Part shown: positions 10,569 through 33,611 of the stretch, in pieces
Layout: the number at the start of each line of letters is the position of its first letter
How positions within the stretch are numbered: position 1 is the stretch's first letter
Origin: a virus
Reading direction: 5' to 3' (one strand)
IMG/VR virus record: IMGVR_UViG_3300043436_003514
Location: 1-47,916 of that record
DNA length: 47,916 nt
Notes under the pieces: model-generated
Told to the model about the DNA's origin: nothing
Database searches by the model: none
The model's input: only the letters and a program-made list of their open reading frames with translations
Made by a program: the position numbers and the translations under genes

Positions 10569-10600
10569 AAAAAAAGAAGGGTTAATTACCCTTCTTTTTT
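10569..10600. terminator. Bidirectional Rho-independent terminator
   Basis: AAAAGAAGGG, a TTAATTA loop and CCCTTCTTTT form a near-perfect palindrome with A and T runs on both flanks. It closes the plus-strand operon and the clpP transcript, whose last codons lie inside it. Confidence 0.85.
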
Positions 10601-11262
10601 GTTTTAACAATCTCGTCAATGATTCCGTATTCAAGAGCGTCGTCCGCACTTAACCACAAATCACGAGTGGCGTCTAAAGTAACTTGTTCTGTAGTTTTAC
10701 CACAATAAGAACCCAACAAATCAAAAAGAATTTTATTTGTTTTTTCCCATTCAATCATATTGATACGAGCGTCTTGGATATTACCATAAGCCCCACCTGA
10801 TGATTGATGTAACATTGTTCTGGAGAAACGTAATGATGAACGTTTACCCTTTGTTCCCGCTCCTAACAGAACTGAACCCATTGATGCCGCCATACCTGTA
10901 TTTACGGTACGAATATCACAAGAGATGTATTCCATAACATCAACCATGGATAGACCTGATTTAACACTTCCTCCTGGTGAGTCAATGTGCATTGTAATGT
11001 CAGATTTATCACTTGAATCTAAGAACATCAATTGTGCTTGCACGATTGTTGACATGCGGTCATTGACTGGACCTGCAACCCATAACAATCTGTCTCTCAT
11101 TAATCTTGAGAAGATGTCCATTTGAGTTGCTCTCATCTCTCTTTCTTCCAAAATGTATGGTGTCATTGATGATTCGATTTGTTGTGAGAAATAATCTAAA
11201 TGTGAAGATGGTTTCCCTAAGTGTTTTGTGTAATAAGCTTGAAATTCTTTTCCGTAATCCAT
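10582..11262 (-). CDS. clpP: ClpP-family serine protease
   Basis: 226 residues from the ATG at 11262; a TTG 24 nt upstream overlaps the promoter and is rejected. The ClpP fold is clear: MHIDSPGGSV (~91-100), the nucleophile Ser127 in GMAASMGSVLL, His152 in TMLHQSSGG and Asp201 in ATRDLWLS. ClpP forms a tetradecameric barrel that degrades proteins delivered by a Clp/Hsp100 ATPase. A matching ATPase is encoded at 31.0-33.0 kb. ClpP-like proteins also act as head proteases in some phages, but this phage has a separate T4-type prohead protease, so a regulatory or takeover role is more likely. The N terminus is longer than usual (~30 extra residues). Confidence 0.93.
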   Translation of the reverse strand: MDYGKEFQAYYTKHLGKPSSHLDYFSQQIESSMTPYILEEREMRATQMDIFSRLMRDRLLWVAGPVNDRMSTIVQAQLMFLDSSDKSDITMHIDSPGGSVKSGLSMVDVMEYISCDIRTVNTGMAASMGSVLLGAGTKGKRSSLRFSRTMLHQSSGGAYGNIQDARINMIEWEKTNKILFDLLGSYCGKTTEQVTLDATRDLWLSADDALEYGIIDEIVKTKKKGN

Positions 11263-11283
11263 GTTTAGTATTTTAGTGTGGTA

Positions 11284-11314
11284 CAAATATAGTTAAAATA
11301 AAACAAACCTCAAA
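11284..11314 (-). promoter_or_regulatory. Host-type promoter for clpP
   Basis: Minus-strand -7 box TATATTTG (11284-11291) with TTTG at 11311-11314, a 19-nt gap, matching the Bacteroidota -33/-7 layout. The ATG is 21 nt downstream of the -7 box. Confidence 0.7.
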
Positions 11315-11325
11315 ATCAATTTGGA

Positions 11326-11634
11326 TTATTCTTCAGTATTTGGAGTTTCACTTTCGTTAGGTGATTCAGTCATTTCACCTTCAGGCATACCTAAGTTTAC
11401 TGCAGTACCTTCTTCAACATCTTCATCACATTTGTAAATGTGTACTTGGTTGTTTTGTTTAAATACGATAACTTTCTTAACTCCTTCACCTAATTTAACA
11501 TCTCCGTTAATATCAACGACAATACCTTCATCGTCTCTGAAGATAAGTCCTAATGCTCTTGCGAAGATTAATGATGCGTTAATCAAATCTTGTTGGTTTT
11601 CACCTGTTTGTTCTGGGTTTGTGTAATTTTCCAT
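11326..11634 (-). CDS. Hypothetical protein (102 aa)
   Basis: The N-terminal part is a helix (NQQDLINASLIFARALGLI), followed by small strands (DDEGIVVDINGDVKLGEGVK) and an acidic Pro/Glu/Ser-rich tail. No family is recognised. It lies between clpP and an HNH gene on the same strand with ~40-60 nt gaps on each side. Confidence 0.6.
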   Translation of the reverse strand: MENYTNPEQTGENQQDLINASLIFARALGLIFRDDEGIVVDINGDVKLGEGVKKVIVFKQNNQVHIYKCDEDVEEGTAVNLGMPEGEMTESPNESETPNTEE

Positions 11635-11675
11635 TTTTATATATTATTTGTTTTTTATAAGTTTAATAATTTATT

Positions 11676-12164
11676 TTAATAAACAAAGGATTCCTGATAC
11701 TCAGTCCAAGCCTTGTTTAGTGTCGCATTATCATTCATAATGGATGGAACATAAGGTTTATGTTTCATTACCATTTTTGCTTCCTCTGGAGTTCTATTAC
11801 CCTTTCTAAGATTACATTTAAAACAACAAGTGACCAAGTTAGTCCATTCGTTTTTTCCACCACGAGATTTAGGAATAACATGGTCCAAAGTTAATTGTTT
11901 AACTGAACCACAATATACACATTCGTGATTATCCCGTTTATAGATTCGATTTCGATTCACCTTTGAAGTCTTTCTACTGAATTTGATATAACTCAACAAT
12001 CGAATGATTAATGGTCTAACATAAGCTGTAAAATTTGCGTTAATCGGATTGTCATCTGATTTTATAATTTCGGCTTTACCCTTATCTACAAGGATAAACC
12101 CCCTCCTTGTTGAAGTTAAATTCAAAGGAGTGTAGTCGTAGTTTAATACCAATACGTTACTCAT
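11676..12164 (-). CDS. HNH endonuclease
   Basis: 162 residues. The N-terminal half (LVLNYDYTPLNLTSTRRG, FILVDKGKAEII) is the usual lead-in of a common HNH family. The HNH domain has CVYCG at ~93-97, then LTLDHVIPKSRGGKNEWTNL with the catalytic His, and CFKCNLRKG with the second CxxC. It should be a metal-dependent DNA nuclease, either free-standing homing or a host-DNA-degrading enzyme. A short terminated transcript lies just upstream on the same strand. Confidence 0.88.
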   Translation of the reverse strand: MSNVLVLNYDYTPLNLTSTRRGFILVDKGKAEIIKSDDNPINANFTAYVRPLIIRLLSYIKFSRKTSKVNRNRIYKRDNHECVYCGSVKQLTLDHVIPKSRGGKNEWTNLVTCCFKCNLRKGNRTPEEAKMVMKHKPYVPSIMNDNATLNKAWTEYQESFVY

Positions 12165-12211
12165 TTTTTCAATTTTTTATAAGGATAGTTTATTTTCTTT
12201 ACAAAACAAAA

Positions 12212-13521: not shown

Positions 13522-13595
13522 GGACCCTTAGCTCAGTAGGTTAGAGCAACTGACTCATAATCAGTAGGTGCACGGTTCGAGCCCGTGAGGGTCCA
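13522..13595 (+). tRNA. tRNA-Met(CAT)
   Basis: Acceptor GGACCCT/AGGGTCC, D stem GCTC/GAGC, anticodon stem ACTGA/TCAGT with loop CTCATAA, T loop TTCGAGC. Not an initiator (normal 1:72 pair). Could alternatively be a lysidine-modified Ile tRNA. The 3' sequence is A-CA, not CCA. Confidence 0.92.
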
Positions 13596-13617
13596 CAAAC
13601 TTAACAAAATAAACAAC

Positions 13618-13878
13618 ATGCCAGAGTTTAGTACATACATCGACATCGAACCGTCAGAATATGTTGACGAGTGTTCAAAAAGTGATATTAAAGAACTGAT
13701 TGAAGAATTAGTTATTCACGGTTACATTAACAAAAGTGATAGTTTAATTGACAAAGAGAAAATTAGTTTAATGGAACAAGAGTTCCATGAAAAACTTGAC
13801 AAACTCAAATCAAAATACTACAACTTATCACCTGATGATGAAGAAACTTTAAAAAACTTATTTTTAAAATACGTTTAG
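13618..13878 (+). CDS. Conserved phage hypothetical protein (86 aa)
   Basis: The ATG at 13618 is preferred because the upstream in-frame extension reads through the tRNA. The sequence MPEFSTYIDIEPSEYVDECS followed by KSDIKELIEELVIHGYI is a pattern I recognise from other phages without a known function. The C-terminal half is a charged helix (EKLDKLKSKYY) and a short LSPDDEETL segment. It lies between two tRNA genes and may be on the same transcript. Confidence 0.7.
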   Translation: MPEFSTYIDIEPSEYVDECSKSDIKELIEELVIHGYINKSDSLIDKEKISLMEQEFHEKLDKLKSKYYNLSPDDEETLKNLFLKYV

Positions 13879-13902
13879 GATTGATTTTTTGACTTTTAGT
13901 AC

Positions 13903-13909
13903 TATTTAT
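13903..13909 (+). promoter_or_regulatory. Candidate phage promoter (TATTTAT)
   Basis: TATTTAT 15 nt before the ATG of the 27-codon ORF at 13925. Confidence 0.35.
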
Positions 13910-13924
13910 ACTATAATTACAACA

Positions 13925-14008
13925 ATGAAAAATTTGAATACACTTTTAGCAACTTTAGCACCGACGAATGGCGGAGGGAGAGATTTATGCTCACGTGTTC
14001 AGATTTAA
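13925..14008 (+). CDS. Possible leader peptide (27 aa)
   Basis: MKNLNTLLATLAPTNGGGRD... ends 30 nt before a strong terminator. The order promoter-like motif, small ORF, terminator, new promoter, tRNA is repeated at 17.6-17.8 kb. It may be a micro-protein or only a leader; coding evidence is weak. Confidence 0.3.
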   Translation: MKNLNTLLATLAPTNGGGRDLCSRVQI

Positions 14009-14038
14009 TCAAAGGTAATAAGAAGCCAAAATGATTGA

Positions 14039-14067
14039 CCCTGAACACAAAATGTTCGGGGTTTTTT
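14039..14067 (+). terminator. Rho-independent terminator
   Basis: CCCTGAACA pairs with TGTTCGGGG around CAAAA and is followed by six T. It separates the upstream small genes from the tRNA operon that follows. Confidence 0.85.
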
Positions 14068-14095
14068 GTTTTATATGAGTTTTTTATTATCTTTG
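14066..14095 (+). promoter_or_regulatory. Host-type promoter of the tRNA operon
   Basis: TTG at 14066-14068, a 19-nt gap and TATCTTTG at 14088-14095. It drives tRNA-Pro and downstream genes and begins in the T run of the preceding terminator. Confidence 0.7.
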
Positions 14096-14098
14096 TAG

Positions 14099-14109
14099 TG
14101 TTCTTTGAC
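14099..14109 (+). promoter_or_regulatory. boxA-like element
   Basis: TGTTCTTTGAC resembles the boxA antitermination signal of rRNA leaders (TGTTCTTTGA in Bacillus-type boxA). It lies at the expected transcript start of the tRNA operon, and copies occur before two other stable-RNA units. Confidence 0.4.
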
Positions 14110-14127
14110 TTATGGGAAAAATATAAT

Positions 14128-14201
14128 CGGGGTGTAGCGTAGCCAGGTATCGCGCTTGGTTTGGGACCAAGAGGTCGTAGGTTCGAATCCTGCCACCCCG
14201 A
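14128..14201 (+). tRNA. tRNA-Pro(TGG)
   Basis: Acceptor CGGGGTG/CACCCCG with the Pro-typical C1:G72 pair, anticodon loop TTTGGGA, T arm GTAGG-TTCGAAT-CCTGC. CCA is not encoded. Confidence 0.93.
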
Positions 14202-14209
14202 CTGAAAAT

Positions 14210-14293
14210 TGGCACGTCGCTCAGAGGCCGAGAGCATCAGGCTGTTAACCTGACTGGGAAACCACACCGTAGGTTCGAATCCTACCGTGTCAG
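14210..14293 (+). tRNA. tRNA-Asn(GTT) with an extended variable arm
   Basis: Acceptor TGGCACG/CGTGTCA, D stem GCTC/GAGC, anticodon stem TCAGG/CCTGA with loop CTGTTAA, T arm GTAGG-TTCGAAT-CCTAC, discriminator G. The variable region is 15 nt and can form TGG-GAAA-CCA, which is unusual because Asn tRNAs have a 5-nt variable loop. Confidence 0.85.
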
Positions 14294-14314
14294 CAATTTT
14301 TTAGAACTATCAAA

Positions 14315-14321
14315 TATTTAT
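14315..14321 (+). promoter_or_regulatory. Candidate phage promoter (TATTTAT)
   Basis: TATTTAT 20 nt before the ATG of the HNH gene at 14342. Confidence 0.4.
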
Positions 14322-14341
14322 TAATATAAAATGTTAATGTT

Positions 14342-14878
14342 ATGGAACGATATTCTAAAGAAATAATCACTCTACGAAAAGAAGGGAAAACGTACAAAGA
14401 GATTGTAAACTTACTTGGTTGTGCATTGTCAACAGTTTCTTACCATTGTAAGATTCATAAACTTGGAGATAATAACCAAAAAATTTCTGAAGATGAAATT
14501 AAAAGTTTTCAAATACTTTATGATACTTTAGGTTCAGTAAAGAAGGTTATGAAAAAAACAAATAGGTCATTTGAAACTATTAAAAAATATGTTAAAACGA
14601 CTGAAAGACAAAAAACAACAACTAACTCTGAGTCGGTAATTTTGTGGAGAAAAAGAACTAAGATAAAACTTATAGAATATAAGGGAGGTAGATGTGAAAT
14701 ATGTGGATATGATAAATGTATGAGAGCTTTGAGTTTTCATCATAAAAATCCAAATGAAAAAGATTTTTCTATTTCAGGTAAAAGTCTTAGTTTTGAAAAA
14801 TTAAAGGGTGAGGTTGATAAATGTATGTTAGTATGTTCAAATTGTCATTCTGAAATTCATGACGGAATGTACAATTAG
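14342..14878 (+). CDS. HNH endonuclease inside the tRNA array
   Basis: 178 residues. The N terminus (LRKEGKTYKEIVNLLGCALS then TVSYHCKIHKLG) is a helix-turn-helix of the kind fused to phage homing nucleases. The C-terminal HNH has CEICGYDKC (~117-125), LSFHHKNPNEKDFSIS with the catalytic His pair and CSNCHSEIHDG at the end. It should cut DNA and could drive its own spread between tRNA loci of related phages. It is inserted between the Asn and Gly tRNAs, with its stop 7 nt before the next tRNA. Confidence 0.9.
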   Translation: MERYSKEIITLRKEGKTYKEIVNLLGCALSTVSYHCKIHKLGDNNQKISEDEIKSFQILYDTLGSVKKVMKKTNRSFETIKKYVKTTERQKTTTNSESVILWRKRTKIKLIEYKGGRCEICGYDKCMRALSFHHKNPNEKDFSISGKSLSFEKLKGEVDKCMLVCSNCHSEIHDGMYN

Positions 14879-14885
14879 GTGTAAT

Positions 14886-14961
14886 GCGAGAGTAGCTCAG
14901 TTGGTAGAGTACAACCTTGCCAAGGTTGGAGTCGCGAGTTCGAATCTCGTTTCTCGCTCCA
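14886..14961 (+). tRNA. tRNA-Gly(GCC)
   Basis: Acceptor GCGAGAG/TTCTCGC, D stem GCTC/GAGT, anticodon stem CAACC/GGTTG with loop TTGCCAA, T loop TTCGAAT, discriminator T as in Gly. CCA is encoded. Confidence 0.93.
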
Positions 14962-14963
14962 TT

Positions 14964-15036
14964 GCGGGAGTAGCTCAGTTGGTAGAGCGATAGCCTTCCA
15001 AGCTATAAGTCGCCAGTTCGAACCTGGTTTCCCGCT
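14964..15036 (+). tRNA. tRNA-Gly(TCC)
   Basis: Acceptor GCGGGAG/TTCCCGC, anticodon stem ATAGC/GCTAT with loop CTTCCAA, T arm CCAG-TTCGAAC-CTGG, discriminator T. The end is T-CA. It lies 2 nt after the previous tRNA. Confidence 0.93.
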
Positions 15037-15408
15037 CAATGAGTAAGAGATACTCAGTAGTTTTGGTACCGTTACTGATAAATGGTATAGTCGTCGCCTC
15101 ACACGGCTTTATGGAGGAGGTCGTCGGAAGAAAGGCAAGAACACCATCTTGACCTCCGAGTATATGGTTGACTTTTAAGCGGTAAGACGCGATGGGTTTT
15201 GAATAGAAAAACTATGAATATCTACTCCCTGTAATCTCAGGGTGGGAAATGTGAGAGTAATCGGTCGAGCTACATCTAGCCGTTAATCACAATATTGGTT
15301 TGGAAACAGAGGTAGCCGTGACTTTTCCAACCGAGCCAACCAAGCTTACTATGATACGGGTTAATACCTGTGGATTAGAGGTGACGGTCAGGAAAGACTG
15401 ACAATTTT
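15037..15408 (+). ncRNA. Hairpin-rich non-coding RNA region in the tRNA array
   Basis: 372 nt without a gene. It has no convincing tRNA or ORF but many local inverted repeats: GAGTA/TACTC (15041-15055), GGAGGTC/GACCTCC (15115-15155), CCCT/AGGG (15227-15242), and a long hairpin with GGTTTGG/CCAACC arms (15297-15332). A D-arm-like stretch followed by GCCTCACACGGC (15072-15107) recalls a tRNA-Val(CAC) but has no T arm or acceptor partner. It is probably processed from the tRNA transcript as one or more stable RNAs. Confidence 0.5.
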
Positions 15409-15484
15409 GGTCCTGAGGTCAAACGGTTAAGATATCTCCCTGTCACGGAGTATGGAGCGGGTTCGACTCCCGTCAGGACCGCCA
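15409..15484 (+). tRNA. tRNA-Asp(GTC)
   Basis: Acceptor GGTCCTG/CAGGACC, anticodon loop CTGTCAC with stem TCTCC/GGAGT, T arm GCGGG-TTCGACT-CCCGT, discriminator G, CCA encoded. Confidence 0.93.
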
Positions 15485-15536
15485 GGGGCTCGGTGGAAGC
15501 CCATGAGTAGGTGATGAGTCTACGTCCGCCAAAATT

Positions 15537-15610
15537 GCCTCCTTAGCTCAGCAGGTTAGAGCGGCTGATTTGTAATCAGCAGGTCGTTGGTTCGATTCCG
15601 ACAGGAGGCT
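15537..15610 (+). tRNA. tRNA-Thr(TGT)
   Basis: Acceptor GCCTCCT/AGGAGGC, anticodon stem GCTGA/TCAGC with loop TTTGTAA, T loop TTCGATT, end T-CA. The 52-nt spacer before it (15485-15536) contains two short hairpins, GGGCT/AGCCC and GTAG/CTAC. Confidence 0.93.
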
Positions 15611-15655
15611 CAAAAGTTTTTAATAAAAAACAACACGATTACCAAATTAATACGT

Positions 15656-15663
15656 TATATTTG
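15656..15663 (+). promoter_or_regulatory. Host-type promoter -7 box (TATATTTG)
   Basis: TATATTTG 24 nt before the ATG at 15688; no clear -33 element. Confidence 0.55.
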
Positions 15664-15687
15664 TATAAACTTAAAAACATAAATAAG

Positions 15688-15852
15688 ATGACAGAAAATG
15701 AACACAGATTTGAACGAAAATTACGTATTGGTTTTGGTCTCATAATTGTTGGATTTGTTATTTGGATGATGAGTTCATGTTCGACATCACAACACGTTGA
15801 TTGTGATGCTTACGGTCAAATAACAACACAACAAGTTGACAAGACTAGTTAA
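15688..15852 (+). CDS. Small membrane-anchored or lipoprotein-like protein (54 aa)
   Basis: The ATG at 15688 follows the promoter; the upstream in-frame extension would begin at the promoter itself. A basic N-terminal segment (HRFERKLRI) precedes a hydrophobic stretch GFGLIIVGFVIWMMSS and a Cys that could be a lipobox (MSSC) or a membrane boundary. The short tail is polar. It is likely an inner-membrane peptide; the function is unknown. Confidence 0.6.
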   Translation: MTENEHRFERKLRIGFGLIIVGFVIWMMSSCSTSQHVDCDAYGQITTQQVDKTS

Positions 15853-15856
15853 AACA

Positions 15857-15932
15857 GGGGGTTACATGTACCAAGGCTTGGCGAGAAACACTTGCAATGT
15901 TTCTGAGGTGGGTTCGATTCCCACTAGCTCCA
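15857..15932 (+). tRNA. tRNA-Ala(TGC), degenerate stems
   Basis: Anticodon stem AAACA/TGTTT with loop CTTGCAA and T arm GTGGG-TTCGATT-CCCAC are good. The acceptor (GGGGGTT/TAGCTCC) has two mismatches and the D stem is weak, with a possible CCAA/TTGG hairpin instead. It may need post-transcriptional correction or be poorly functional. End A-CA. Confidence 0.7.
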
Positions 15933-15945
15933 CAAAATAGAAATT

Positions 15946-16293
15946 ATGGCACATCCAAATTTACACGCAAAAAGTTCGGCAAAAAAATTCGGTGGAAAAC
16001 CTGAGGATTATATTCATCTACATGAGTGGATGGATGAAACCAAAAGTTGGTTGGGTGATTCATTACATAGAATGTTCCGACACCATAGTGAAGGAATCTT
16101 TGAAATGGAAAAACGATTTGGTCCTGAATTTACAAATAGCGATGGGAAAATAGTTTATACTCGATATGTTGGAGAACAACATGTTAAGGAAGATTGTAAT
16201 AATTATATTCCATGTGCAAAGGAATGGATTACCAATATTTCAGAAAATAAACGACCTCAATGGATGTTGAGGACCATGAACATAGAAGACTGA
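15946..16293 (+). CDS. Conserved phage/bacterial protein (DUF6915-like)
   Basis: 115 residues. MAHPNLHAKSSAKKFGGKPE followed by DYIHLHEWMDETK, then FRHHSEGIFEMEKRFG, TNSDGK and YVGEQHVKEDC is a strongly conserved pattern in phages and bacteria that I associate with DUF6915. Many His and acidic residues hint at metal binding. No function is established. It sits in the tRNA array between tRNA-Ala and a second protein gene. Confidence 0.7.
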   Translation: MAHPNLHAKSSAKKFGGKPEDYIHLHEWMDETKSWLGDSLHRMFRHHSEGIFEMEKRFGPEFTNSDGKIVYTRYVGEQHVKEDCNNYIPCAKEWITNISENKRPQWMLRTMNIED

Positions 16294-16304
16294 TATTTAA
16301 TAGT

Positions 16305-17024
16305 ATGAAAGGAATACTAACACCAGAAGAAAAACAATACTTAAGAAGAACTGCAAATTATCTTGGTTCTTTAGGAATGAGAAATGGATACATTGATATT
16401 GAAATGGAACAAGATGATGACCGAATTAACTCTAAAGACGTTAATTGGCGTCATGTAACTAAATTTGAAAACAACTATAGTGCAGATATTCCTGAAGGAT
16501 TGAAACCCATTTTAAAAAAAGTACTTGAATATGTCGATTCATTAGATAATTTAAATAATGATATTATTGATGACATCAGTCACCAAAGAATTGAAATCAA
16601 TATTAATGGTGAAGATAAGGAGATTACAGTTAGACATGAACTTTATTATTACAGTCGAGATGATGGTCATATGGTTGAATACGATTCTGAAGATGATATA
16701 GAAAGATTTAACCGATGGATTGACGAAGATTTAGAAGATGTTGAAGTGCCTTCTGACGGTATTTTAACTTTACCTTACAATGGTGGTGGTGATTCGGGAT
16801 ATATTGAAAGTTCTTTTGAACCAACTGGTGATGCAGTACCTGCAAGTATTGAAAATTGGTGTTATAGTGAACTTGAAAGTCATTTTGGTGGTTGGGAAAT
16901 AAATGAAGGTTCCGATGGGGTTTTCATATTCAATTTCAACGATTCAACTGTTACTTTGGAACACACATACAATACAGAAGAAAATCAGACCGATACTCTT
17001 TATGAAGAAAGTTTTGACAAGTAA
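16305..17024 (+). CDS. Hypothetical acidic protein with GGWEINEGSDG domain
   Basis: 239 residues from ATG 16305; a longer in-frame start at 16260 overlaps the previous gene. The N terminus starts MKGILTPEEKQYLRRTANYL. The C-terminal ~90 residues contain YNGGGDSGYIESSFE, ENWCYSELESHFGGWEINEG and FNFNDSTVTLEHTYN, a compact domain also seen in other phage proteins of unknown function. Strong acidity and lack of membrane segments suggest a cytosolic protein. No catalytic motif is recognised. Confidence 0.65.
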   Translation: MKGILTPEEKQYLRRTANYLGSLGMRNGYIDIEMEQDDDRINSKDVNWRHVTKFENNYSADIPEGLKPILKKVLEYVDSLDNLNNDIIDDISHQRIEININGEDKEITVRHELYYYSRDDGHMVEYDSEDDIERFNRWIDEDLEDVEVPSDGILTLPYNGGGDSGYIESSFEPTGDAVPASIENWCYSELESHFGGWEINEGSDGVFIFNFNDSTVTLEHTYNTEENQTDTLYEESFDK

Positions 17025-17048
17025 GTTGTATCTTTAAGTAAAATCAAT

Positions 17049-17056
17049 TATATTTG
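17049..17056 (+). promoter_or_regulatory. Host-type promoter -7 box (TATATTTG) for tRNA-Leu
   Basis: TATATTTG 18 nt before the 5' end of tRNA-Leu(TAA). Confidence 0.6.
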
Positions 17057-17074
17057 TACCATAGTAAAATAAAT

Positions 17075-17162
17075 GCTCGGGTGGTGGAATAGGTAGACAC
17101 GCCAGACTTAAAATCTTGTGGGCTTTACGCCCGTGCGGGTTCGATTCCCGCTCCGAGTACCA
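17075..17162 (+). tRNA. tRNA-Leu(TAA)
   Basis: Class II tRNA: acceptor GCTCGGG/TCCGAGT, anticodon loop CTTAAAA, long variable arm GTGGGCTTTACGCCC, T loop TTCGATT, A73 and encoded CCA. Confidence 0.93.
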
Positions 17163-17168
17163 AAATAT

Positions 17169-17242
17169 GTCTTCGTAGCTCAGCTGGATAGAGCAACTGC
17201 CTTCTAAGCAGTAGGTCACAGGTTCGAATCCTGTCGGGGATA
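17169..17242 (+). tRNA. tRNA-Arg(TCT)
   Basis: Acceptor GTCTTCG/CGGGGAT with several G-T pairs, anticodon stem ACTGC/GCAGT with loop CTTCTAA, T arm ACAGG-TTCGAAT-CCTGT, end A-CA. Confidence 0.92.
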
Positions 17243-17244
17243 CA

Positions 17245-17356
17245 ATATATCATATCTTCAGGTACCCGTACCGCAAACGTAGGGTTAAGTAAGATACAAT
17301 TTCGTGTTACATTTATGTAAAAGCGGGGAGTAGAATGCCTGTCTGATGTGATATAT
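17245..17356 (+). ncRNA. Structured RNA closed by a 12-bp stem
   Basis: ATATATCATATC at 17245-17256 pairs with GATGTGATATAT at 17345-17356 (one G-T pair), continuing after a small internal loop with CAGG/CCTG. Inside lie GGTA/TACC and TTACA/TGTAA hairpins. It fits between two tRNAs with 2 nt on either side, as expected for a separately processed RNA. No T-loop or ORF. Confidence 0.55.
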
Positions 17357-26911: not shown

Positions 26912-26915
26912 AACC

Positions 26916-26922
26916 ATAAATA
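26916..26922 (-). promoter_or_regulatory. Candidate phage late promoter (TATTTAT)
   Basis: Minus-strand TATTTAT, four bases, ATG at 26911. Confidence 0.5.
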
Positions 26923-26930
26923 TATGGTAA

Positions 26931-26960
26931 TAAAAAAACCTCACCATATGATGAGGTTTT
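26931..26960 (-). terminator. Terminator of the tmRNA transcript
   Basis: On the minus strand AAAACCTCA, loop, TGAGGTTTT and seven T follow the tmRNA CCA end by 3 nt. Confidence 0.85.
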
Positions 26961-26963
26961 AAT

Positions 26964-27360
26964 TGGTGGAGGTAGAGGGATTCGAACCCTCGTCTTGCCC
27001 ATCTTGACAATAAATGACTACACGCTTAGGTCAACATTTAAGCTAATGTTCCGAAATTTCACAATTCCCTTATTTTAAAGTGGTTCGGTTTACTGAGAAC
27101 TAATCCTCCACTTGTTTCTTTTAAGATAGAAACCACACCTTACAAGGACTTCTGTTCCTGGGTTAGTGTCCTCCCGACCCGATGGTTCTTCCTAATCTGA
27201 TTAGGCTGCAACCGTAGCATCTTCACGGACTAATCCGATAGCTGCCATTTTGTTTAAAACGTTGCCGTTTAACTTTTGTATCCGTAGATTTAAGTGATAG
27301 GAAACTTCTCACTGCGTGCCACGTATCCCCAACTATGTCAATCGATACCAGTGTACCCCC
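26964..27360 (-). ncRNA. ssrA: Transfer-messenger RNA (tmRNA, ssrA)
   Basis: On the minus strand the RNA begins GGGGGTACACTGGTATCGAT, matching the universal tmRNA 5' end (GGGG-N-TGG-TTCGAC). It ends with a T arm GAGGG-TTCGAAT-CCCTC, acceptor TACCTCC (pairing with GGGGGTA), A73 and an encoded CCA. It is 397 nt. The tag reading frame is preceded by GTTAAAC; the likely resume codon is GGC at 27266-27264, and the tag runs 21 codons from GNVL to DATVAA before TAA at 27203-27201. tmRNA with SmpB rescues stalled ribosomes and marks the product for proteolysis. No smpB is in the window, so host SmpB would be used. Own promoter, boxA-like site and terminator are present. Confidence 0.93.
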
Positions 27361-27464: not shown

Positions 27465-27495
27465 CAAAGGTAAGTATAAATATGAATATTCCAAA
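27465..27495 (-). promoter_or_regulatory. Host-type promoter of tmRNA
   Basis: Minus-strand TACCTTTG (27465-27472), 19-nt gap, TTTG (27492-27495). The ~100-nt leader to the tmRNA start contains CCTTAA/TTAAGG and would be removed by processing. Confidence 0.75.
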
Positions 27496-27504
27496 CAAAA
27501 CTGG

Positions 27505-27527: not shown

Positions 27528-29318
27528 GTGATAATAATTGAAGGTAAAACCGAAGACGTTGCAAAGAGATTGAAACAAAAGTTTCAGTATGATGGTCCAT
27601 TTATTGACAGGATATTAAGTGTTGACCCTACAAGATATAAATACGTAGAATACATTGCCAAAAAATTAGAAAAAATTATTCCTGAGTTGGCAGGACCTAA
27701 TGGTGGTCTTAATGTACAACAGGGAGAGGCTCTACAAGATTTATTTGGGACAATCATCCCTTGGTTCCATGCGAACGTAAATAGAATCAAAGAAGACGAT
27801 ATTTGGACTGCTGAAACAGCATTTAGAAACGACATGAATAGTGAATATGTTGTTCCAAACATTGAAGGTATTGCTCGTTCACCAAAAGACATCAATCAAT
27901 ATGAAAACCCACAATTCATCAAAAAGTTGATGAATACGATTGACGCAAGAAAAACTCAAAGGGAAATTGAAAGAGAGATTAAAACTCAAGCCGATAAGAT
28001 TTATGAAGACAATGATGTCTTAGTTGTTAGACCTAAATCACATGCGGCGTCATGTTATTATGGTGCCAATACAAAATGGTGTACAACACAAACGGGAAAC
28101 CCTGGTTATTTTGAAAAGTATTTCAGAGACGGAAACTTATATTATTTTTTAAATAAAAAAACTAATGATAAACTTGCGTTATATAGAAACGAAAATGAAA
28201 GACAAACCGAAGTATATAATTCTCAAGACCGAAATATACCATTAGAAGATTTAAGAGAAGCATTCCCAAATCAAAATGAGTTAATTGACGAATTATTAGG
28301 GATAGGTGAATTCATTAAAAAACTACGTGAATTTAGTAGAGGTAAGGCAAGTATTAGAGAACTTGAAGATTCGGATTCATCAATACTTGAAGTTATTCCT
28401 GCAGACCCATTGGGTCAAAGTAAAATTATATTTGATTTTGGCGATGACGATAATTTCTTAAAAATGTTGGATTTAAGTGATGATGACATTTGGTTTTTTA
28501 ATGTGATTAATAGTCATTACAGTGATTATGAATTTATAGATTCATATACCGTTGATGAAGATTGGAAAGAAGGGTATATTGTTTATGGTGATTTAAATGA
28601 TGAAAATAAGGAAAAATTAAAACAAATTTCGGAAGTTATATTACCATCAAAAGAATTTAATTTAAATAGCGACGAATATAGACAAGAGTTATCTTCAGTA
28701 TTGTTAGATTTATTTGAAAGAGAAACCGATAATATTCTTAGTGACTATTTTGTGGAAAAAAATAGGGAAATGACAATTACCGCAAGAGAAAGTATGAATA
28801 AAGAACTTGAAAAAGTTGTGGAAGATATTGGGTTTTATTTTAAAAGAAAATTTGATGAGGTTTATACTACTCCTGCAAATATTGTAATGTTGGCAGCAAA
28901 ACTTGGTATTAATAAAATTGATGCTATGTCATTAATAAAACAACTTATTGAAACATATGCTGGTAATATAGGAGGTTGGGCTGAGGACCAATATGAATAC
29001 CAAGATTATGATAATTTTGATAAGGACTCATTTAATAATGAAGTTGAAAGACAATTAGATTCAATTATTGAAAAATTGGAAGATGACGTAAATGTTACGG
29101 AGTTTTTGGAATTTAGAAAAAGAATATTATCTAAATACAAAATAGATGTATGGTATGAATTACCAAAAGACAAGAAAAAAAGTTTCAAAATAAAAGAGTT
29201 TGATAAAGATGATATGACAGTATCAGTTGAAATGAGAACACCTGAAGGAAGATTTGAAACTAAAAAATATCCCGAAGAAAATTTTTATTATTTATTACAC
29301 CAACCAGAGTTATTTTAA
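27528..29318 (+). CDS. KWCTT-domain protein, probable virion/internal protein (paralogue 2)
   Basis: 596 residues from a GTG start (MIIIEGKTEDVAKRLKQKF). Residues ~155-215 hold the shared module: KIYEDNDVLVVRPKSHAASC, YYGANTKWCTT, GYFEKYFRDGNLYYFLNKK. In both paralogues the module reads like a small catalytic or binding domain with invariant Ser-Cys, Thr-Lys-Trp-Cys and a Tyr-rich strand. The rest is acidic and helical with no recognised domain. The two paralogues are divergent and flank the tmRNA. The TATTTAT motif marks it as a late gene. Confidence 0.75.
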   Translation: MIIIEGKTEDVAKRLKQKFQYDGPFIDRILSVDPTRYKYVEYIAKKLEKIIPELAGPNGGLNVQQGEALQDLFGTIIPWFHANVNRIKEDDIWTAETAFRNDMNSEYVVPNIEGIARSPKDINQYENPQFIKKLMNTIDARKTQREIEREIKTQADKIYEDNDVLVVRPKSHAASCYYGANTKWCTTQTGNPGYFEKYFRDGNLYYFLNKKTNDKLALYRNENERQTEVYNSQDRNIPLEDLREAFPNQNELIDELLGIGEFIKKLREFSRGKASIRELEDSDSSILEVIPADPLGQSKIIFDFGDDDNFLKMLDLSDDDIWFFNVINSHYSDYEFIDSYTVDEDWKEGYIVYGDLNDENKEKLKQISEVILPSKEFNLNSDEYRQELSSVLLDLFERETDNILSDYFVEKNREMTITARESMNKELEKVVEDIGFYFKRKFDEVYTTPANIVMLAAKLGINKIDAMSLIKQLIETYAGNIGGWAEDQYEYQDYDNFDKDSFNNEVERQLDSIIEKLEDDVNVTEFLEFRKRILSKYKIDVWYELPKDKKKSFKIKEFDKDDMTVSVEMRTPEGRFETKKYPEENFYYLLHQPELF

Positions 29319-29350
29319 TTTGGTTAGTTCTAATTAAAGTTATATATTTG
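29319..29350 (+). promoter_or_regulatory. Host-type promoter for the M20 peptidase
   Basis: TTTG at 29319-29322, 20 nt, TATATTTG at 29343-29350, four bases, ATG at 29355. Confidence 0.78.
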
Positions 29351-29354
29351 CTTT

Positions 29355-30194
29355 ATGGAACAAAATTTAGAATTACTTAAAGCCGTTTTGAGCGTGCCTA
29401 CCGCAACGTATCACGAAGAAAAAATGGTCGCATTTTTGGTTAATTGGTTAACTGAAAATAATATTGAACACTACGTAGACCAACATAACAACGTCTATGC
29501 GACCAAACAAGAATCCCAAGACCTTCCTGAAGATTTTTATTTTCCATGTGTAATTTCACATACGGATACCGTACATGGACTTAACGATATCAATATTCGT
29601 GAGGAAATGTTACCAAACGCCCAAAAAGAAATTAAATTATCTTATAAGGCATACGATAACGATGGAGACCCAACAGGTATTGGTGGTGATGACAAATGTG
29701 GTGTTTTTGCATGTCTGACATTGTTAAAAGAACTACCTTATGTTAAGGCGGCATTCTTTGTATCTGAAGAAACAGGATGTCACGGTTCAATGAAGGCAGA
29801 CCCAACTTTCTTTGAAAATGTTGGATACGGAATTCAATTTGATGCACCTGAGAACTGGATGATTACAGAGAAATGTTTTGGTCAAGTTTTGTTTGATAGA
29901 GAAACAGAATTCTTTGATGCTTGTGATGAAGTATTAACTGAAGGAATGGGTGATAGAATGAGATACATGGTTCACCCCTACACTGACGTATATGCTCTAA
30001 GAGGTAAGTTTGACTTCTCTTGTATTAACTTCTCAATTGGATACTACCAATATCATACAAGCCATGAATACGTCGTTGTTGAGGATGTAATTAACGGTAT
30101 CGACATGGGTAAAAAAATGATTGATAAACTTGGTCATAAATTACATTATAAAGAGATGGTTGAACATGGTTGGAAATCCAAGTGGGTTTTTTAA
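29355..30194 (+). CDS. M20-family metallopeptidase (PepT-like)
   Basis: 279 residues, shorter than PepT (~400), so the dimerisation lid seems reduced. The binuclear zinc ligands of M20 enzymes are visible: His69 and Asp71 in ISHTDTVH, Asp112 in GIGGDDKCG, the catalytic Glu138-Glu139 in VSEETGCHG, Asp163 in QFDAP, and a final His in YHTSHEYV. The enzyme should cut short peptides or deacylate amino acids in the cytoplasm. Host-type leaderless promoter indicates early expression. It could recycle peptides made by the ClpCP protease. Confidence 0.85.
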   Translation: MEQNLELLKAVLSVPTATYHEEKMVAFLVNWLTENNIEHYVDQHNNVYATKQESQDLPEDFYFPCVISHTDTVHGLNDINIREEMLPNAQKEIKLSYKAYDNDGDPTGIGGDDKCGVFACLTLLKELPYVKAAFFVSEETGCHGSMKADPTFFENVGYGIQFDAPENWMITEKCFGQVLFDRETEFFDACDEVLTEGMGDRMRYMVHPYTDVYALRGKFDFSCINFSIGYYQYHTSHEYVVVEDVINGIDMGKKMIDKLGHKLHYKEMVEHGWKSKWVF

Positions 30195-30955
30195 ATAAAG
30201 TTTTCTAACTTATCTAAATGTCTTTTAATCATCGGGTGGTCTTGAATATCATTATATTCGCCACCTGATTTTTTTATTTGTTTAATACTATCTATAATCA
30301 TTTTTAATTGATATAATACCATTTTAGAAGTTAATGGGTAATTTTCAATATATGATGACAACCCTAAATTTTGTTTTGCAACATCAATAGGTAATCCAAG
30401 TTTGATTATTAGTTTTGCAATCATTTCTTTTCCAAATCTATCGGCATCTAATTCTAAATCCCAATAATGGTTTGCAATTTTTTCAAAGTCTTCTAAATCA
30501 TAATCCGTTAAAGGATTGTCTAATCCCATTCCAGTTTTATCCATTTGTTCTTCATGTCTTATTTCATGGAATACGGTGTAAATAAAATCACCAAGAGTTG
30601 TCATTGCATTTGGAGAACAAATAATAATTTGGTCTTTGGTTCTCACACCATTAAAACCTGTAGAACAGGAGTTAAGAAATTTAACCGTAAAGTTATGGTC
30701 TTGAATATAATTAACAATAAACTTCTCAATTACATCGACCTTATCTTTTAAATCCTCAGGAAATTTTGTTTTAAATTTTTCCAATAATTTATTCAAATTT
30801 GATTTTGATTTGGGTTCGTTATCATGACCACATTCATGACAGATATATAAGTCATCACCTCCATCGGCAATATCCCACGACCATCCACATTTGTCACAAA
30901 TTATTTCTTTATTTGTTACAGTTTCTATAATAACCTTTCTGATTAAATCCCTCAT
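30191..30955 (-). CDS. Zinc-ribbon plus HExxH metallopeptidase-like protein
   Basis: 254 residues from ATG 30955. The N terminus carries a zinc ribbon, CDKCGW (Cys20/23) and CHECGHD (Cys39/42), of a form found fused to various proteins in these phages. VFHEIRHEEQ at ~128-137 is an HExxH gluzincin-type site with His130, Glu131, His134; ELDADRFG further on supplies the third ligand. It should be a zinc-dependent peptidase or a packaged protein with a peptidase fold. TATTTAT ends 5 nt before the ATG, suggesting late expression and possible packaging. It is convergent with the M20 gene. Confidence 0.78.
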   Translation of the reverse strand: MRDLIRKVIIETVTNKEIICDKCGWSWDIADGGDDLYICHECGHDNEPKSKSNLNKLLEKFKTKFPEDLKDKVDVIEKFIVNYIQDHNFTVKFLNSCSTGFNGVRTKDQIIICSPNAMTTLGDFIYTVFHEIRHEEQMDKTGMGLDNPLTDYDLEDFEKIANHYWDLELDADRFGKEMIAKLIIKLGLPIDVAKQNLGLSSYIENYPLTSKMVLYQLKMIIDSIKQIKKSGGEYNDIQDHPMIKRHLDKLENFI

Positions 30956-30960
30956 CAAAT

Positions 30961-31001: not shown

Positions 31002-33017
31002 TTATCGTCCTTTCTTTTGAACAACCACATTCTCATCCACAACTTTGATGATGTAGGTCTTACCCTCTACCATCTTACCCGTTAGGACTTCTTCAGATAA
31101 TAGGTCTTCGACCTTGTCCTGAATTGCTCGTTTCAATGGACGAGCTCCGTACAATTCATCGTACCCAATCTTTGCCAAGTATTCTACCAAAGATTCGTCG
31201 TATGTGATTTTGTACTTCATGTCTACAAGACGAGTCATCAATTTGTTCAATTCGATGTCCGTAATCTTCTTGATGTCTTCTTGACCCAAAGAGTTGAATA
31301 CGATTGTATCATCGATACGGTTGATGAACTCAGGTGAGAAGAAGTTTTTCATTTCCTTCATCAACATTTGTTTCTTAGCTTCTTCATTACTATATGAATT
31401 ACTTGAGAAACCAATACCTGTTCCAAAGTCTTGTAGTTTTTTAACTCCCAAGTTTGATGTCAAGATAATCAAGGTATTCTTGAAGTTAATCTTACGACCC
31501 AAACTATCGGTTACGTGACCATCATCTAAAATTTGAAGTAGGATGGTGAACACATCTTTGTGAGCCTTTTCGACCTCATCGAATAGGATTACAGAATAAG
31601 GTTTGTTTTTAACTTTTTCAGTTAACAATCCACCTTCTTCATAACCTACGTATCCTGGAGGGGCTCCAACCAATTTGGATACGGTGTGTTTCTCTTGGTA
31701 TTCAGACATGTCGACACGAATGAGAGCATCTTCGGAACCGAACATTTCTTTTGCCAATTGTTTTGCCAAATAGGTCTTACCAACACCAGTTGAACCCAAG
31801 AACACAAACGAACCTATTGGACGATTAGGGTCTTTGATACCCAAACGGTTTCTCTTGATTGCCTTCGCAATCTTAATCACCGCATTGTTTTGACCGATTA
31901 CTTTGTCAATCAAAGTTTTGTCCAAGTCAACCAAAGCTTTGGTGTCGTCCACACTCATTTTACTTACAGGGATTTTTGTCATGTTCGATACAACATCATA
32001 AACATGTTCCAATAAGATGAGTTGTTTTTCTTTGGATAACTTTTCCTCAAACTTGATTTTCTCTTGGTCCAACTTTAACAACAACTTTTTCTCTTTGTCT
32101 CTAAGTTCAGCCGCCTGTTCGTAGTTTTGTTTTTTAACTACTTCCATTTTTTGGACTTTGATGTCCGCCGCTTTCTTCTTCAATTCTTCAATTGCTTCAG
32201 GAACTTTTAAGTCAGTCTGCATTCTTGCCCCAACCTCATCCAAGATGTCAAACGCTTTATCAGGGAACTCACGGTCCGTGATATAACGGTCTGCCAACTT
32301 AACACAAGTTTCAATCACCTCATCGCTGTAATTCACCTTATGGAAATCTTCGTATTTGTCACGAACATTTTTAAGGATTTGGATTGTCTCATCAACTGAT
32401 GATGGTTCAACGATTACCTTTTGGAATCTACGTTCCAACGCTCCATCTTTTTCAATGTTTTTACGGAACTCATCTAATGTAGTTGCTCCGATACATTGAA
32501 CTTCCCCACGTGCCAATGCGGGTTTAAAGATGTTTGAACCGTCCATTGAACCTGAAGAATTACCTGAACCAACCAAAGTGTGAATCTCATCGATGAATAC
32601 GATGATGTTCGGGTTTGCTTGAAGTTCTTCGATAATCACCTTCATACGTTCTTCAAATTGTCCACGATACTTCGTACCAGCGACAACTGAAGTTAGGTCA
32701 AGATTGACAATACGTTTATCCACCAAATTACGAGGACAATCTCCATTTACAATCTTAATTGCCAAACCTTCAACAAGTGCGGTTTTACCACAGCCAGGTT
32801 CTCCAAGAATGATTGGGTTGTTTTTCTTTCTACGAGAAAGAATCTGAGCAATCCTTAAGATTTCTCGGTCACGACCAATTACAGGGTCAAGTTTACCAGC
32901 TTCTGCTAGTTTAATCAAATCTCTACTGAAGTTGTCCAATACAGGTGTGTTAGATTCTCCTGATGATTTTGATTTTTTGTTCATTGTTTTGTCGTCGTCG
33001 TCCATTAAGTCGTTCAT
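31002..33017 (-). CDS. clpC: ClpC-type AAA+ unfoldase lacking the N-terminal domain
   Basis: 671 residues against ~850 for bacterial ClpC. The sequence enters the ClpC pattern at NTPVLDNFSRDLIKLAEAGK, the start of AAA-1, so the whole Clp_N domain is replaced by ~22 polar residues. AAA-1 has Walker A GEPGCGKT (72-79) and Walker B FIDE (141-144). A short middle region with a UVR-like motif (KKQNYEQAAELRDKEKKL, ~295-312) follows. AAA-2 has Walker A GSTGVGKT (408-415) and Walker B LFDE (478-481). GIGF at 534-537 matches the IGF-type loop that docks on ClpP. It should unfold proteins into a ClpP barrel. Loss of the N domain removes the usual adaptor (MecA/McsB/ClpS) docking site. Confidence 0.95.
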   Translation of the reverse strand: MNDLMDDDDKTMNKKSKSSGESNTPVLDNFSRDLIKLAEAGKLDPVIGRDREILRIAQILSRRKKNNPIILGEPGCGKTALVEGLAIKIVNGDCPRNLVDKRIVNLDLTSVVAGTKYRGQFEERMKVIIEELQANPNIIVFIDEIHTLVGSGNSSGSMDGSNIFKPALARGEVQCIGATTLDEFRKNIEKDGALERRFQKVIVEPSSVDETIQILKNVRDKYEDFHKVNYSDEVIETCVKLADRYITDREFPDKAFDILDEVGARMQTDLKVPEAIEELKKKAADIKVQKMEVVKKQNYEQAAELRDKEKKLLLKLDQEKIKFEEKLSKEKQLILLEHVYDVVSNMTKIPVSKMSVDDTKALVDLDKTLIDKVIGQNNAVIKIAKAIKRNRLGIKDPNRPIGSFVFLGSTGVGKTYLAKQLAKEMFGSEDALIRVDMSEYQEKHTVSKLVGAPPGYVGYEEGGLLTEKVKNKPYSVILFDEVEKAHKDVFTILLQILDDGHVTDSLGRKINFKNTLIILTSNLGVKKLQDFGTGIGFSSNSYSNEEAKKQMLMKEMKNFFSPEFINRIDDTIVFNSLGQEDIKKITDIELNKLMTRLVDMKYKITYDESLVEYLAKIGYDELYGARPLKRAIQDKVEDLLSEEVLTGKMVEGKTYIIKVVDENVVVQKKGR

Positions 33018-33071
33018 ATTTTTAAATTGTTTTACAAATTAACGTCAAATTTCATACACTTCCAAATAATT

Positions 33072-33084
33072 TGACAAATTGTCA
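33072..33084. promoter_or_regulatory. Operator-like palindrome TGACA-N3-TGTCA, copy 1
   Basis: Perfect inverted repeat TGACAAATTGTCA in the divergent clpC/UVR gap, 55 nt upstream of the clpC ATG. Confidence 0.6.
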
Positions 33085-33101
33085 TGATAATTTTTTTAAC
33101 C

Positions 33102-33114
33102 TGACATAATGTCA
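33102..33114. promoter_or_regulatory. Operator-like palindrome TGACA-N3-TGTCA, copy 2
   Basis: TGACATAATGTCA, centre exactly 30 bp from copy 1, so both lie on about the same DNA face. Likely sites for a dimeric regulator acting on clpC and the UVR gene. Confidence 0.6.
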
Positions 33115-33138
33115 TGGATTAATTGAAATTGTGTCTTA

Positions 33139-33145
33139 TATTTAT
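33139..33145 (+). promoter_or_regulatory. Candidate phage promoter (TATTTAT)
   Basis: TATTTAT 61 nt before the ATG at 33207. A 10-codon ORF (ATG at 33153, MILDKYKDNQ) lies between, 7 nt after the motif. Confidence 0.4.
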
Positions 33146-33206
33146 CATCGGTATGATACTTGACAAGTACAAAGATAATCAATAAATTTAAATAAAACAA
33201 AAAAAT

Positions 33207-33611
33207 ATGTTTAACAAAAGAAGATTTAACTTTAACTTTGACGACCTAATGGCTCGTTACGACAAAATGATGGAAGAATTCAATAAACAAGATTGGGATA
33301 CCAAAACTTTTGAATCTCCTGATGGGAATTACAAATACACCCGTTATGTAAAGGTATTCGATTTATCAGATTTTGATAATGATAATTCAAAAGAAATGGA
33401 TAAAGAAGAATATCTTAAAATCAAACTTGAAAGAGCAATTGAAATGGAAGATTTTGAACAAGCCGTTAAGTTGAGAGACCAAATCAAAAACTTGGGAACC
33501 AATCAAGAACAAATTGAAAAACTTGAATTGGAATTAAAAAAATCAATCGAAGAACAGAACTTCGAAAAATCAATTGAAATTCGAGACCATTTAAGAAAAT
33601 TGAAGTCATAA
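33207..33611 (+). CDS. Two-UVR-motif protein, McsA-like Clp partner candidate
   Basis: 134 residues. The C-terminal half holds two consecutive UVR motifs: LERAIEMEDFEQAVKLRDQI (~76-95) and LKKSIEEQNFEKSIEIRDHL (~110-129). UVR motifs are short helical hairpins found in UvrB/UvrC, in the ClpC middle domain and in McsA, the ClpC activator. The N-terminal half (FNFNFDDLMARYDKMMEEFN; YKYTRYVKVFDLS) lacks the McsA zinc fingers. The gene is divergent from clpC across a gap with paired palindromes, so a role as adaptor or activator of the phage ClpC is likely but inferred. Confidence 0.8.
   Translation: MFNKRRFNFNFDDLMARYDKMMEEFNKQDWDTKTFESPDGNYKYTRYVKVFDLSDFDNDNSKEMDKEEYLKIKLERAIEMEDFEQAVKLRDQIKNLGTNQEQIEKLELELKKSIEEQNFEKSIEIRDHLRKLKS

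What the first reader, a model, noticed from the sequence alone, without database searches (positions are those of the whole stretch)
10582..33611. Phage-encoded ClpC/ClpP pair with UVR partner and tmRNA: a proteolysis system
The window encodes ClpP (Ser127/His152/Asp201), a ClpC whose N domain is missing but whose ClpP-docking GIGF loop is kept, a two-UVR-motif protein divergent from clpC, and a tmRNA whose tag could be a substrate signal. UVR motifs occur in the ClpC middle domain and in its activator McsA. Together they could be a self-contained degradation system freed from host adaptors.
Basis: partly seen in the sequence, partly recalled or inferred. Interest (0 to 1): 0.9.

Follow-up and report, generated by a model that had tools for sequence, protein, structure and literature searches.

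The report
Phage with own protein-disposal pathway
A family of large viruses that probably infect Bacteroidota carries its own tagging RNA, protein-unfolding motor, protease barrel and peptide-trimming enzyme, which together look like a private system for clearing unfinished proteins during infection.

Summary
All four features are real: ClpP (10582-11262 -), an N-domain-less ClpC with a GIGF loop (31002-33017 -), a two-UVR-motif protein (33207-33611 +) and a tmRNA (26964-27360 -; Rfam 86.7 bits, missed by ARAGORN). The window is a fragment of a jumbo phage family; relatives reach 309-326 kb.

The UVR gene is not core: its slot holds UVR in 38, Hsp20 in 20 and neither in 20 of 78 loci.

66 of 66 tmRNAs encode a private 21-22 residue tag with Gly11-Leu12 fixed; G3.U70 is in 65 of 65. 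clpP, tmRNA and peptidase often share Bacteroidota-type promoters. A palindrome marks the clpC intergenic region.

Most likely a phage trans-translation/proteolysis pathway that uses host SmpB in most genomes. Tag reading by the phage ClpCP, ClpC-ClpP docking and UVR binding are inferred.

The parts
10582..11262 (-). clpP (226 aa from ATG; S127/H152/D201)
   Evidence: Pfam 5.8e-55; triad invariant in 16 of 16
11284..11314 (-). Bacteroidota-type promoter match upstream of clpP
   Evidence: pattern match; same arrangement upstream of 26 of 52 clpP genes; consensus recalled
26964..27360 (-). tmRNA (ssrA)
   Evidence: Rfam RF00023 86.7 bits; acceptor pairing and G3.U70
27201..27266 (-). tag reading frame in the tmRNA: GNVLNKMAAIGLVREDATVAA and stop
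   Evidence: aligned in 66 tmRNAs, frame open in 66 of 66
27465..27499 (-). Bacteroidota-type promoter match 105 nt upstream of the tmRNA
   Evidence: a match within 250 nt in 39 of 79 tmRNA upstream regions
29319..29350 (+). Bacteroidota-type promoter match, 4 nt before the peptidase ATG
   Evidence: a match in 47 of 79 M20 upstream regions
29355..30194 (+). PepT-like M20 peptidase
   Evidence: Pfam Peptidase_M20 under its cut-off (20.3 of 24.6 bits); AF2 pLDDT 93, Foldseek best 3gb0 PepT E 8.7e-13; in 52 of 52 loci
31002..33017 (-). clpC without N domain (671 aa; GIGF 534-537; middle-domain UVR motif with Y299)
33072..33084 (.). palindrome TGACANNNTGTCA, first copy
33102..33114 (.). palindrome TGACANNNTGTCA, second copy
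33170..33201 (-). Bacteroidota-type promoter match toward clpC
   Evidence: a match within 400 nt in 20 of 72 clpC upstream regions
33207..33611 (+). two-UVR-motif protein in the exchangeable slot divergent from clpC
   Evidence: Pfam UVR 46.6 bits; UVR 38, Hsp20 20, neither 20 of 78 loci

Best explanation
A phage-encoded protein-quality and recycling pathway. The phage tmRNA, charged with alanine and usually working with host SmpB, rescues ribosomes stalled during infection and adds the phage's own 21-22 residue tag. The N-domain-less ClpC hexamer takes tagged or unfolded proteins directly at its pore, unfolds them and threads them into the phage ClpP, docked through its G[IVL]GF loops. The PepT-like peptidase trims the released peptides to amino acids. 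ClpC is tuned by whichever partner fills the divergent slot: a UVR protein that engages ClpC's own UVR-type middle domain, or an Hsp20 that hands over aggregates. Shown by sequence: the parts, their conservation, the tag frame, the shared promoter class. Inferred: ClpC-ClpP docking, tag recognition, UVR or Hsp20 binding, peptide recycling, co-expression.
For: Co-occurrence in long relatives. M20 in 52 of 52 and tmRNA in 51 of 52 clpC loci with room. Tag frame open in 66 of 66 against 3 of 66 in each other frame, length 21 or 22 in 66 of 66 and excess synonymous change, A(-4), G11 and L12 invariant. G3.U70 in 65 of 65. G[IVL]GF in 80 of 80 ClpCs tallied. Triad in 16 of 16 ClpPs. Invariant M20 residues in 34 sequences, PepT fold. 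Promoter pattern before tmRNA 39 of 79, M20 47 of 79, clpP 26 of 52, clpC 20 of 72, against TerL 0 of 58 and nb34212 0 of 94. Separate S77 head protease. In print, ClpC1 without its N domain still unfolds an SsrA-tagged protein (PMC6274998, passages).
Against: No interaction or activity tested. UVR gene absent from 40 of 78 loci, and the middle-domain aromatic is kept whether or not a UVR partner is present. Phage SmpB in only 2 of 19. G010 has no clpP match in the record, which extends 33 kb past clpC, and L068 has no tmRNA match. ClpP pocket has a Y62H change relative to the cellular ClpPs sampled. About half of the tmRNA, M20 and clpP copies lack the exact promoter pattern, and UVR (1 of 54) and Hsp20 (0 of 19) almost never have it. 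The tag's last residues vary.
Confidence: 0.5

Rival explanations
1. ClpC works mainly as a disaggregase and refolding motor (ClpB-like) with the Hsp20 or UVR partner, and ClpP works with host ClpX or ClpC; the two phage proteins need not form one machine.
For: Hsp20 fills the slot in 20 of 78 loci, and Hsp20 with Hsp100 is a known disaggregation pairing (recalled). NCBIfam ranks ClpB first for the whole protein, though under its cut-off.
Against: The ClpP-docking loop G[IVL]GF is kept in 80 of 80 and clpP co-occurs with clpC in 19 of 22 long records that have clpC. The middle domain is the short ClpC type: it aligns with S. aureus-type ClpC (6em8) without large gaps.
Confidence: 0.2
2. The phage tag is for ribosome rescue and for evading host proteases: tagged products are hidden from host ClpXP rather than sent to phage ClpCP.
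For: The tag interior is more fixed than its end; the last residue is Ile or Ser in 5 of 66 and the penultimate is V, A, T, G, E, K or I.
Against: The end stays hydrophobic-plus-Ala in most (Ala last in 61 of 66), and a phage unfoldase-protease is kept beside it.
Confidence: 0.15
3. Unlinked auxiliary genes of a large phage that happen to sit in a conserved region.
For: Neighbouring genes of unknown function are as conserved as the module (nb27528 in 52 of 52). Distant huge phages keep only part of the set.
Against: Shared promoter class for clpP (20 kb away), tmRNA and peptidase, absent before terminase and nb34212; functionally coherent set.
Confidence: 0.12
4. ClpP is the phage's head maturation protease.
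For: The best PHROG is 'head maturation protease' (phrog_94, 125.8 bits).
Against: A separate S77 prohead protease lies by terminase and portal. ClpP scores 232.7 bits with a cellular ClpP model (under its cut-off of 361) against 68 bits with ClpP-related head proteases.
Confidence: 0.02

Closest known systems
Bacterial trans-translation with Clp proteolysis (tmRNA, SmpB, SsrA tag, ClpXP/ClpAP)
   Same: tmRNA fold, alanine G3.U70 signal, resume-codon context, a Clp unfoldase and ClpP
   Different: Phage genes; 21-22 residue tag with fixed Gly-Leu inside; N-domain-less ClpC; SmpB found in 2 of 19 long relatives
Mesoplasma florum long SsrA tag read by its own Lon (PMC9382460, passages)
   Same: A longer tag that has left the common type, with a possible dedicated protease
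   Different: ClpC-ClpP in place of Lon; viral; recognition not shown
Sinorhizobium jumbo phage AP-J-162 (PMC11242549, passages)
   Same: A jumbo phage with Clp proteins, Hsp20 and a tmRNA
   Different: ClpX-type gene named there; no described module, tag or ClpC-UVR pair in the passages seen; different phage group
Huge phages of Al-Shayeb et al. (PMC7162821, passages)
   Same: tmRNA and SmpB reported; LR745206, LR756502 and LR756504 carry ClpC and ClpP
   Different: Clp not mentioned in the main text searched; LR745206 and LR756502 have no tmRNA over the cut-off
UVR-motif ClpC partners: McsA, and plant ClpF (recalled)
   Same: Small protein with UVR motif beside a ClpC whose middle domain has a UVR motif
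   Different: No cysteine in the window protein, so no zinc fingers; McsA model 33.8 of 210 bits; two UVR motifs; no match in the phages collection

Membership tests
ClpP (peptidase S14) | Ser-His-Asp triad and CLP_protease domain | tested here: met
   5.8e-55; S127/H152/D201 in 16 of 16
ClpP (peptidase S14) | Tetradecamer with hydrophobic docking pockets | tested here: inconclusive
   Oligomer not testable; T92 and S112 also in Bacteroidota ClpPs, Y62H phage-specific in the sample
ClpC (Hsp100, class I) | Two AAA+ modules | tested here: met
   alignment to 6em8, 11-656
ClpC (Hsp100, class I) | N-terminal Clp_N domain | tested here: not met
   No Clp_N in the window protein nor anywhere in 19 long relatives, control rang in 9 of 14 genomes; three Bacteroidota ClpCs are 841-844 aa against a median of 671 in 80 phage ORFs. 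So: ClpC-type, not a complete ClpC
ClpC (Hsp100, class I) | Short middle domain with UVR motif | tested here: met
   19.8 bits in the window protein, under the 21.5 cut-off; over the cut-off in most relatives; Y or F at the aromatic position in 80 of 80
ClpC (Hsp100, class I) | ClpP-docking loop | tested here: met
   G[IVL]GF in 80 of 80 tallied
tmRNA | Covariance-model match, tRNA-like domain with G3.U70, tag frame | tested here: met
   86.7 bits; 65 of 65 and 448 of 453 acceptor pairs; frame
McsA | N-terminal zinc fingers (recalled) | tested here: not met
   No cysteine in the 134-aa protein; McsA model 33.8 of 210 bits
McsA | McsB partner kinase | tested here: inconclusive
   0 of 19, but the control rang nowhere
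PepT / M20 peptidase | Fold and metal-site residues | tested here: met
   Foldseek 3gb0 E 8.7e-13; H69, D71, D112, E138, E139, D163, H234 invariant in 34 (roles recalled); Pfam under its cut-off; shorter (279 aa) than the PepT chains (373-416)
Hsp20 (alternative gene in the slot) | Alpha-crystallin domain | tested here: met
   PF00011 over its cut-off in 4 of 4 tested of the 20

The most novel reading that the evidence does not exclude
A virus has evolved an orthogonal degron-protease pair: its tmRNA writes a private 21-22 residue tag that its own N-domain-less ClpC-ClpP reads, so the phage takes ribosome rescue and protein disposal away from host adaptors and proteases, recycles the amino acids with its own PepT-like peptidase, and tunes ClpC through an exchangeable partner (UVR or Hsp20) under a dedicated operator.
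Probability: 0.3. Interest if true: 0.85.

Novelty: new variant of a known kind. Interest (0 to 1): 0.62.

Why it matters
Phage tmRNAs and phage Clp genes are each known, but what they are for is open. Here they form a conserved set with a shared promoter class and a tag whose DNA varies while its peptide pattern is kept. That makes the question directly testable: express tag, ClpC and ClpP and ask who degrades what. If true, it is a natural orthogonal degron-protease pair from an abundant phage group without a close named isolate in the collection searched, and a case of a Hsp100 motor without its adaptor domain whose neighbouring partner gene is exchanged again and again.

Tried and rejected
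Head-protease role for ClpP: rejected, separate S77 protease. A remodelled ClpP pocket as a phage invention: mostly rejected, because T92 is in all and S112 in three of the four Bacteroidota ClpPs from named bacteria; only Y62H stays phage-specific in the sample (also in LR745206, not in L308). The LR756502 row came out empty (wrong frame) and was not used. Homology of UVR protein and Hsp20: rejected, hhalign probability 8.9%. Dependence of the ClpC middle-domain aromatic on a UVR partner: no signal. UVR fold: model pLDDT 66, no Foldseek match with E of 0.001 or less. Full-length cellular UVR relatives: a capped scan gave 10 loci, matching 35 to 75 residues of the query, all in its UVR half; not exhaustive. 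Host tmRNA tag for comparison: no Rfam match in three Bacteroidota replicons and no paper with three recalled tag strings. McsB search uninformative, control silent. A regex for the acceptor stem matched only 2 sequences and was replaced by column-based counting.

Rows dropped: tmRNA hits cut by contig ends (query start over 110 or end under 200) and identical sequences before the 66. Two of 80 clpC loci without upstream room before the 78. Loci with an identical upstream stretch were counted once. The 80 clpC loci are the best of at least 600 candidates, so they lean to close relatives and are not independent samples.
Full report
Observation. The window is a 47,916-base virus record. It holds terminase (39960-41720 +) and portal (41761-43608 +) genes, an S77 prohead protease at 45089-45811 + (8.1e-23) and 26 tRNA genes. 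ClpP matches Pfam CLP_protease (5.8e-55) and, from the ATG at 11262, has S127/H152/D201, invariant in 16 of 16 phage homologues. The ClpC-type ATPase (671 aa) has both AAA+ modules and no Clp_N domain; residues 11-656 align with 147-793 of ClpC in PDB 6em8. The UVR protein has two motifs (46.6 bits). The tmRNA scores 86.7 bits with Rfam over its full length, although ARAGORN misses it.

Relatives. No close named phage was found: by terminase the best named isolates, Microcystis phage Mel-JY01 and Flavobacterium phage immuto, are at 25.5%. In 23 long records chosen because they carry ClpC, ClpP or TerL, clpC is in 22 and clpP in 20. tmRNA is over Rfam's cut-off in 19, and two more are seen with the window tmRNA or a family profile (G006 through L034; G020 through L304). 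Of the misses, G011 and G023 end within 8 kb of the part they hold, before clpC or clpP would be reached. G009 ends 20.7 kb after clpC, inside the 12.7-29.6 kb at which clpP lies in the others (places), so it is undecided. G010 extends 33 kb past clpC without a clpP match and may really lack it. With the terminase as a neutral anchor, 16 of 17 loci with at least 9 kb upstream have the clpC-UVR pair; the seventeenth contig has clpC outside the held stretch, with Hsp20 in the slot (L023). That set is of close relatives (86% terminase identity or more). At greater distance the set parts: LR745206, LR756502 and LR756504 carry ClpC and ClpP, Lak-B5 has ClpP without a full ClpC match, and the first two have no tmRNA over the cut-off.

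Core and variable parts. Of 80 clpC-anchored loci, the best of at least 600 candidates, 78 have room upstream. The divergent slot holds a UVR gene in 38, a small heat-shock gene in 20 and neither in 20, never both. Four of the 20 heat-shock proteins were tested and all four are Hsp20. On a quick ClpC tree the three states need 11 changes (shuffled mean 33.7), so the slot has been exchanged repeatedly and inherited in between. Of 52 loci with at least 5.5 kb downstream, 52 have the M20 gene and 51 the tmRNA (L068 is the exception). Genes of unknown function are as constant (nb27528 in 52 of 52). The M20 model (pLDDT 93) matches PepT aminopeptidases best (3gb0, E 8.7e-13; 1fno tripeptidase, E 3.0e-12). 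H69, D71, D112, E138, E139, D163 and H234, which I take as metal-site and catalytic residues from recalled family knowledge, are invariant in 34 sequences. Similar peptidases at about 30% identity are in Cellulophaga phages and LR756504. SmpB was found in 2 of 19 long records, in one beside the tmRNA (G010). ClpS and Clp_N were found in 0 of 19, with controls ringing in 5 and 9 of 14 genomes. The McsB test is uninformative.

The tag. Aligning 66 distinct tmRNAs (partial and identical ones dropped) places the resume codon at GGC in the window, with A at -4 in 66 of 66 and T or C at -5 in 66 of 66; that these positions matter is recalled. The tag is 21 residues in 53 and 22 in 13. Its first 20 codons are open in 66 of 66, against 3 of 66 in each other frame. 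Among 45 distinct 21-codon tags, diversity is 0.34, 0.27 and 0.50 at codon positions 1 to 3, and the synonymous share of codon differences is 30% in frame against 19% and 7%. Among 49 distinct peptides Gly11 and Leu12 never vary; Lys6 is in 63 of 66 tmRNAs; the last residue is Ala in 61, Ile in 3 and Ser in 2. The acceptor stem pairs in 448 of 453 cells, with G3.U70 in 65 of 65 and two-sided changes at other positions. This is a functional-looking alanine-type tmRNA with a selected peptide whose interior is more fixed than its end.

Expression signals. The pattern TTTG-N17-24-TANNTTTG, the Bacteroidota promoter consensus (recalled), occurs 17 times in the window against 5.1 expected, 0 of 100 shuffles as high. 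In relatives it lies within 250 nt of tmRNA in 39 of 79, M20 in 47 of 79 and clpP in 26 of 52, and within 400 nt of clpC in 20 of 72. It precedes UVR in 1 of 54, Hsp20 in 0 of 19, nb27528 in 1 of 74, nb34212 in 0 of 94 and terminase in 0 of 58; background is about 4% per 400 nt. A palindrome TGACANNNTGTCA occurs 51 times in 1.27 Mb of 71 clpC loci, each time in the 400 nt before clpC. With spacers of 2-4 it is in 30 of 32 UVR, 11 of 20 Hsp20 and 0 of 20 empty-slot regions, background 2%. In all 343 loci then held, 8 of 131 sites are not beside an annotated clpC: seven lie about 200 nt into the clpP match of clpP-anchored loci and one near a contig end; none lies before three Bacteroidota clpC genes. 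The site's reader is unknown.

Origin. In the plasmid collection the best cellular matches of ClpP (42-46%) and ClpC (54-59%) are Bacteroidota. With the promoters this suggests a Bacteroidota host; no host is shown. The ClpP docking pocket mostly follows Bacteroidota ClpP; the phage-specific change in the sample is Y62 to H (pocket positions recalled). G[IVL]GF is kept in 80 of 80 ClpCs tallied.

Mechanism. The best reading is a phage trans-translation and proteolysis pathway: tmRNA, usually with host SmpB, tags stalled products; N-domain-less ClpC feeds them to ClpP; the PepT-like enzyme finishes the peptides. Loss of the N domain is compatible with this, since ClpC1 without its N domain still unfolds an SsrA-tagged protein and is regulated through residues around the UVR motif of its middle domain (PMC6274998, passages). 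A UVR protein beside a ClpC with a UVR-type middle domain is therefore a plausible regulator, but it is optional. The longer tag recalls Mesoplasma, whose long tag is read by its own Lon (PMC9382460, passages). Docking, tag reading and partner binding remain inferences.

What is known. Phage tmRNAs are known (PMC4131195 and PMC9004378, passages), as are tmRNA and SmpB in huge phages (PMC7162821, passages; no 'clp' in its main text), Clp proteins with tmRNA and Hsp20 in phage AP-J-162 (PMC11242549, passages), and CLP_protease or clpP among jumbo-phage annotations (PMC12363816 and PMC13037316, passages). The searches showed no listing that describes this module; apart from the papers named, only listings were seen, and the library lacks most subscription journals. 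I rate it a new variant of a known kind.

Noticed in passing
window 13522-20913: 26 tRNA genes that together cover all 20 amino acids.
   Followed up: no
window 20954-22219: A PLP-dependent aminotransferase gene (Pfam 1.3e-37) directly after the tRNA array; a relative in only 9 of 276 loci then held.
   Followed up: partly
window 25388-27010 and 27528-29318: Two proteins matching the same PHROG of unknown function (phrog_17056) flank the tmRNA; the second has relatives in 52 of 52 clpC loci with room.
   Followed up: partly
window 30191-30958: Protein with an HExxH motif and a zinc-ribbon-like N terminus next to clpC; found in 22 of 52 loci.
   Followed up: partly
L302 9601-10006; L303 6070-6476; L305 5397-5802: GOLLD RNA (275-287 bits) within several kb of clpC in distant huge phages and, in L305, near the tmRNA.
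   Followed up: no
window 18521-18551, 19332-19363, 25097-25127, 29319-29350: Promoter matches that end 4 nt before an ATG, which would give leaderless transcripts; the same 4-nt spacing in 33 of 47 M20 hits in relatives.
   Followed up: partly
window 33072-33114: Two palindromes TGACANNNTGTCA in the clpC-UVR intergenic region, the only two in the window (0.13 expected); their reader is unknown.
   Followed up: partly
phages collection, records such as MT837238 and OR846854: Some strong ClpC matches in the phage collection look like bacterial sequence deposited as phage; an impression, not checked.
   Followed up: no
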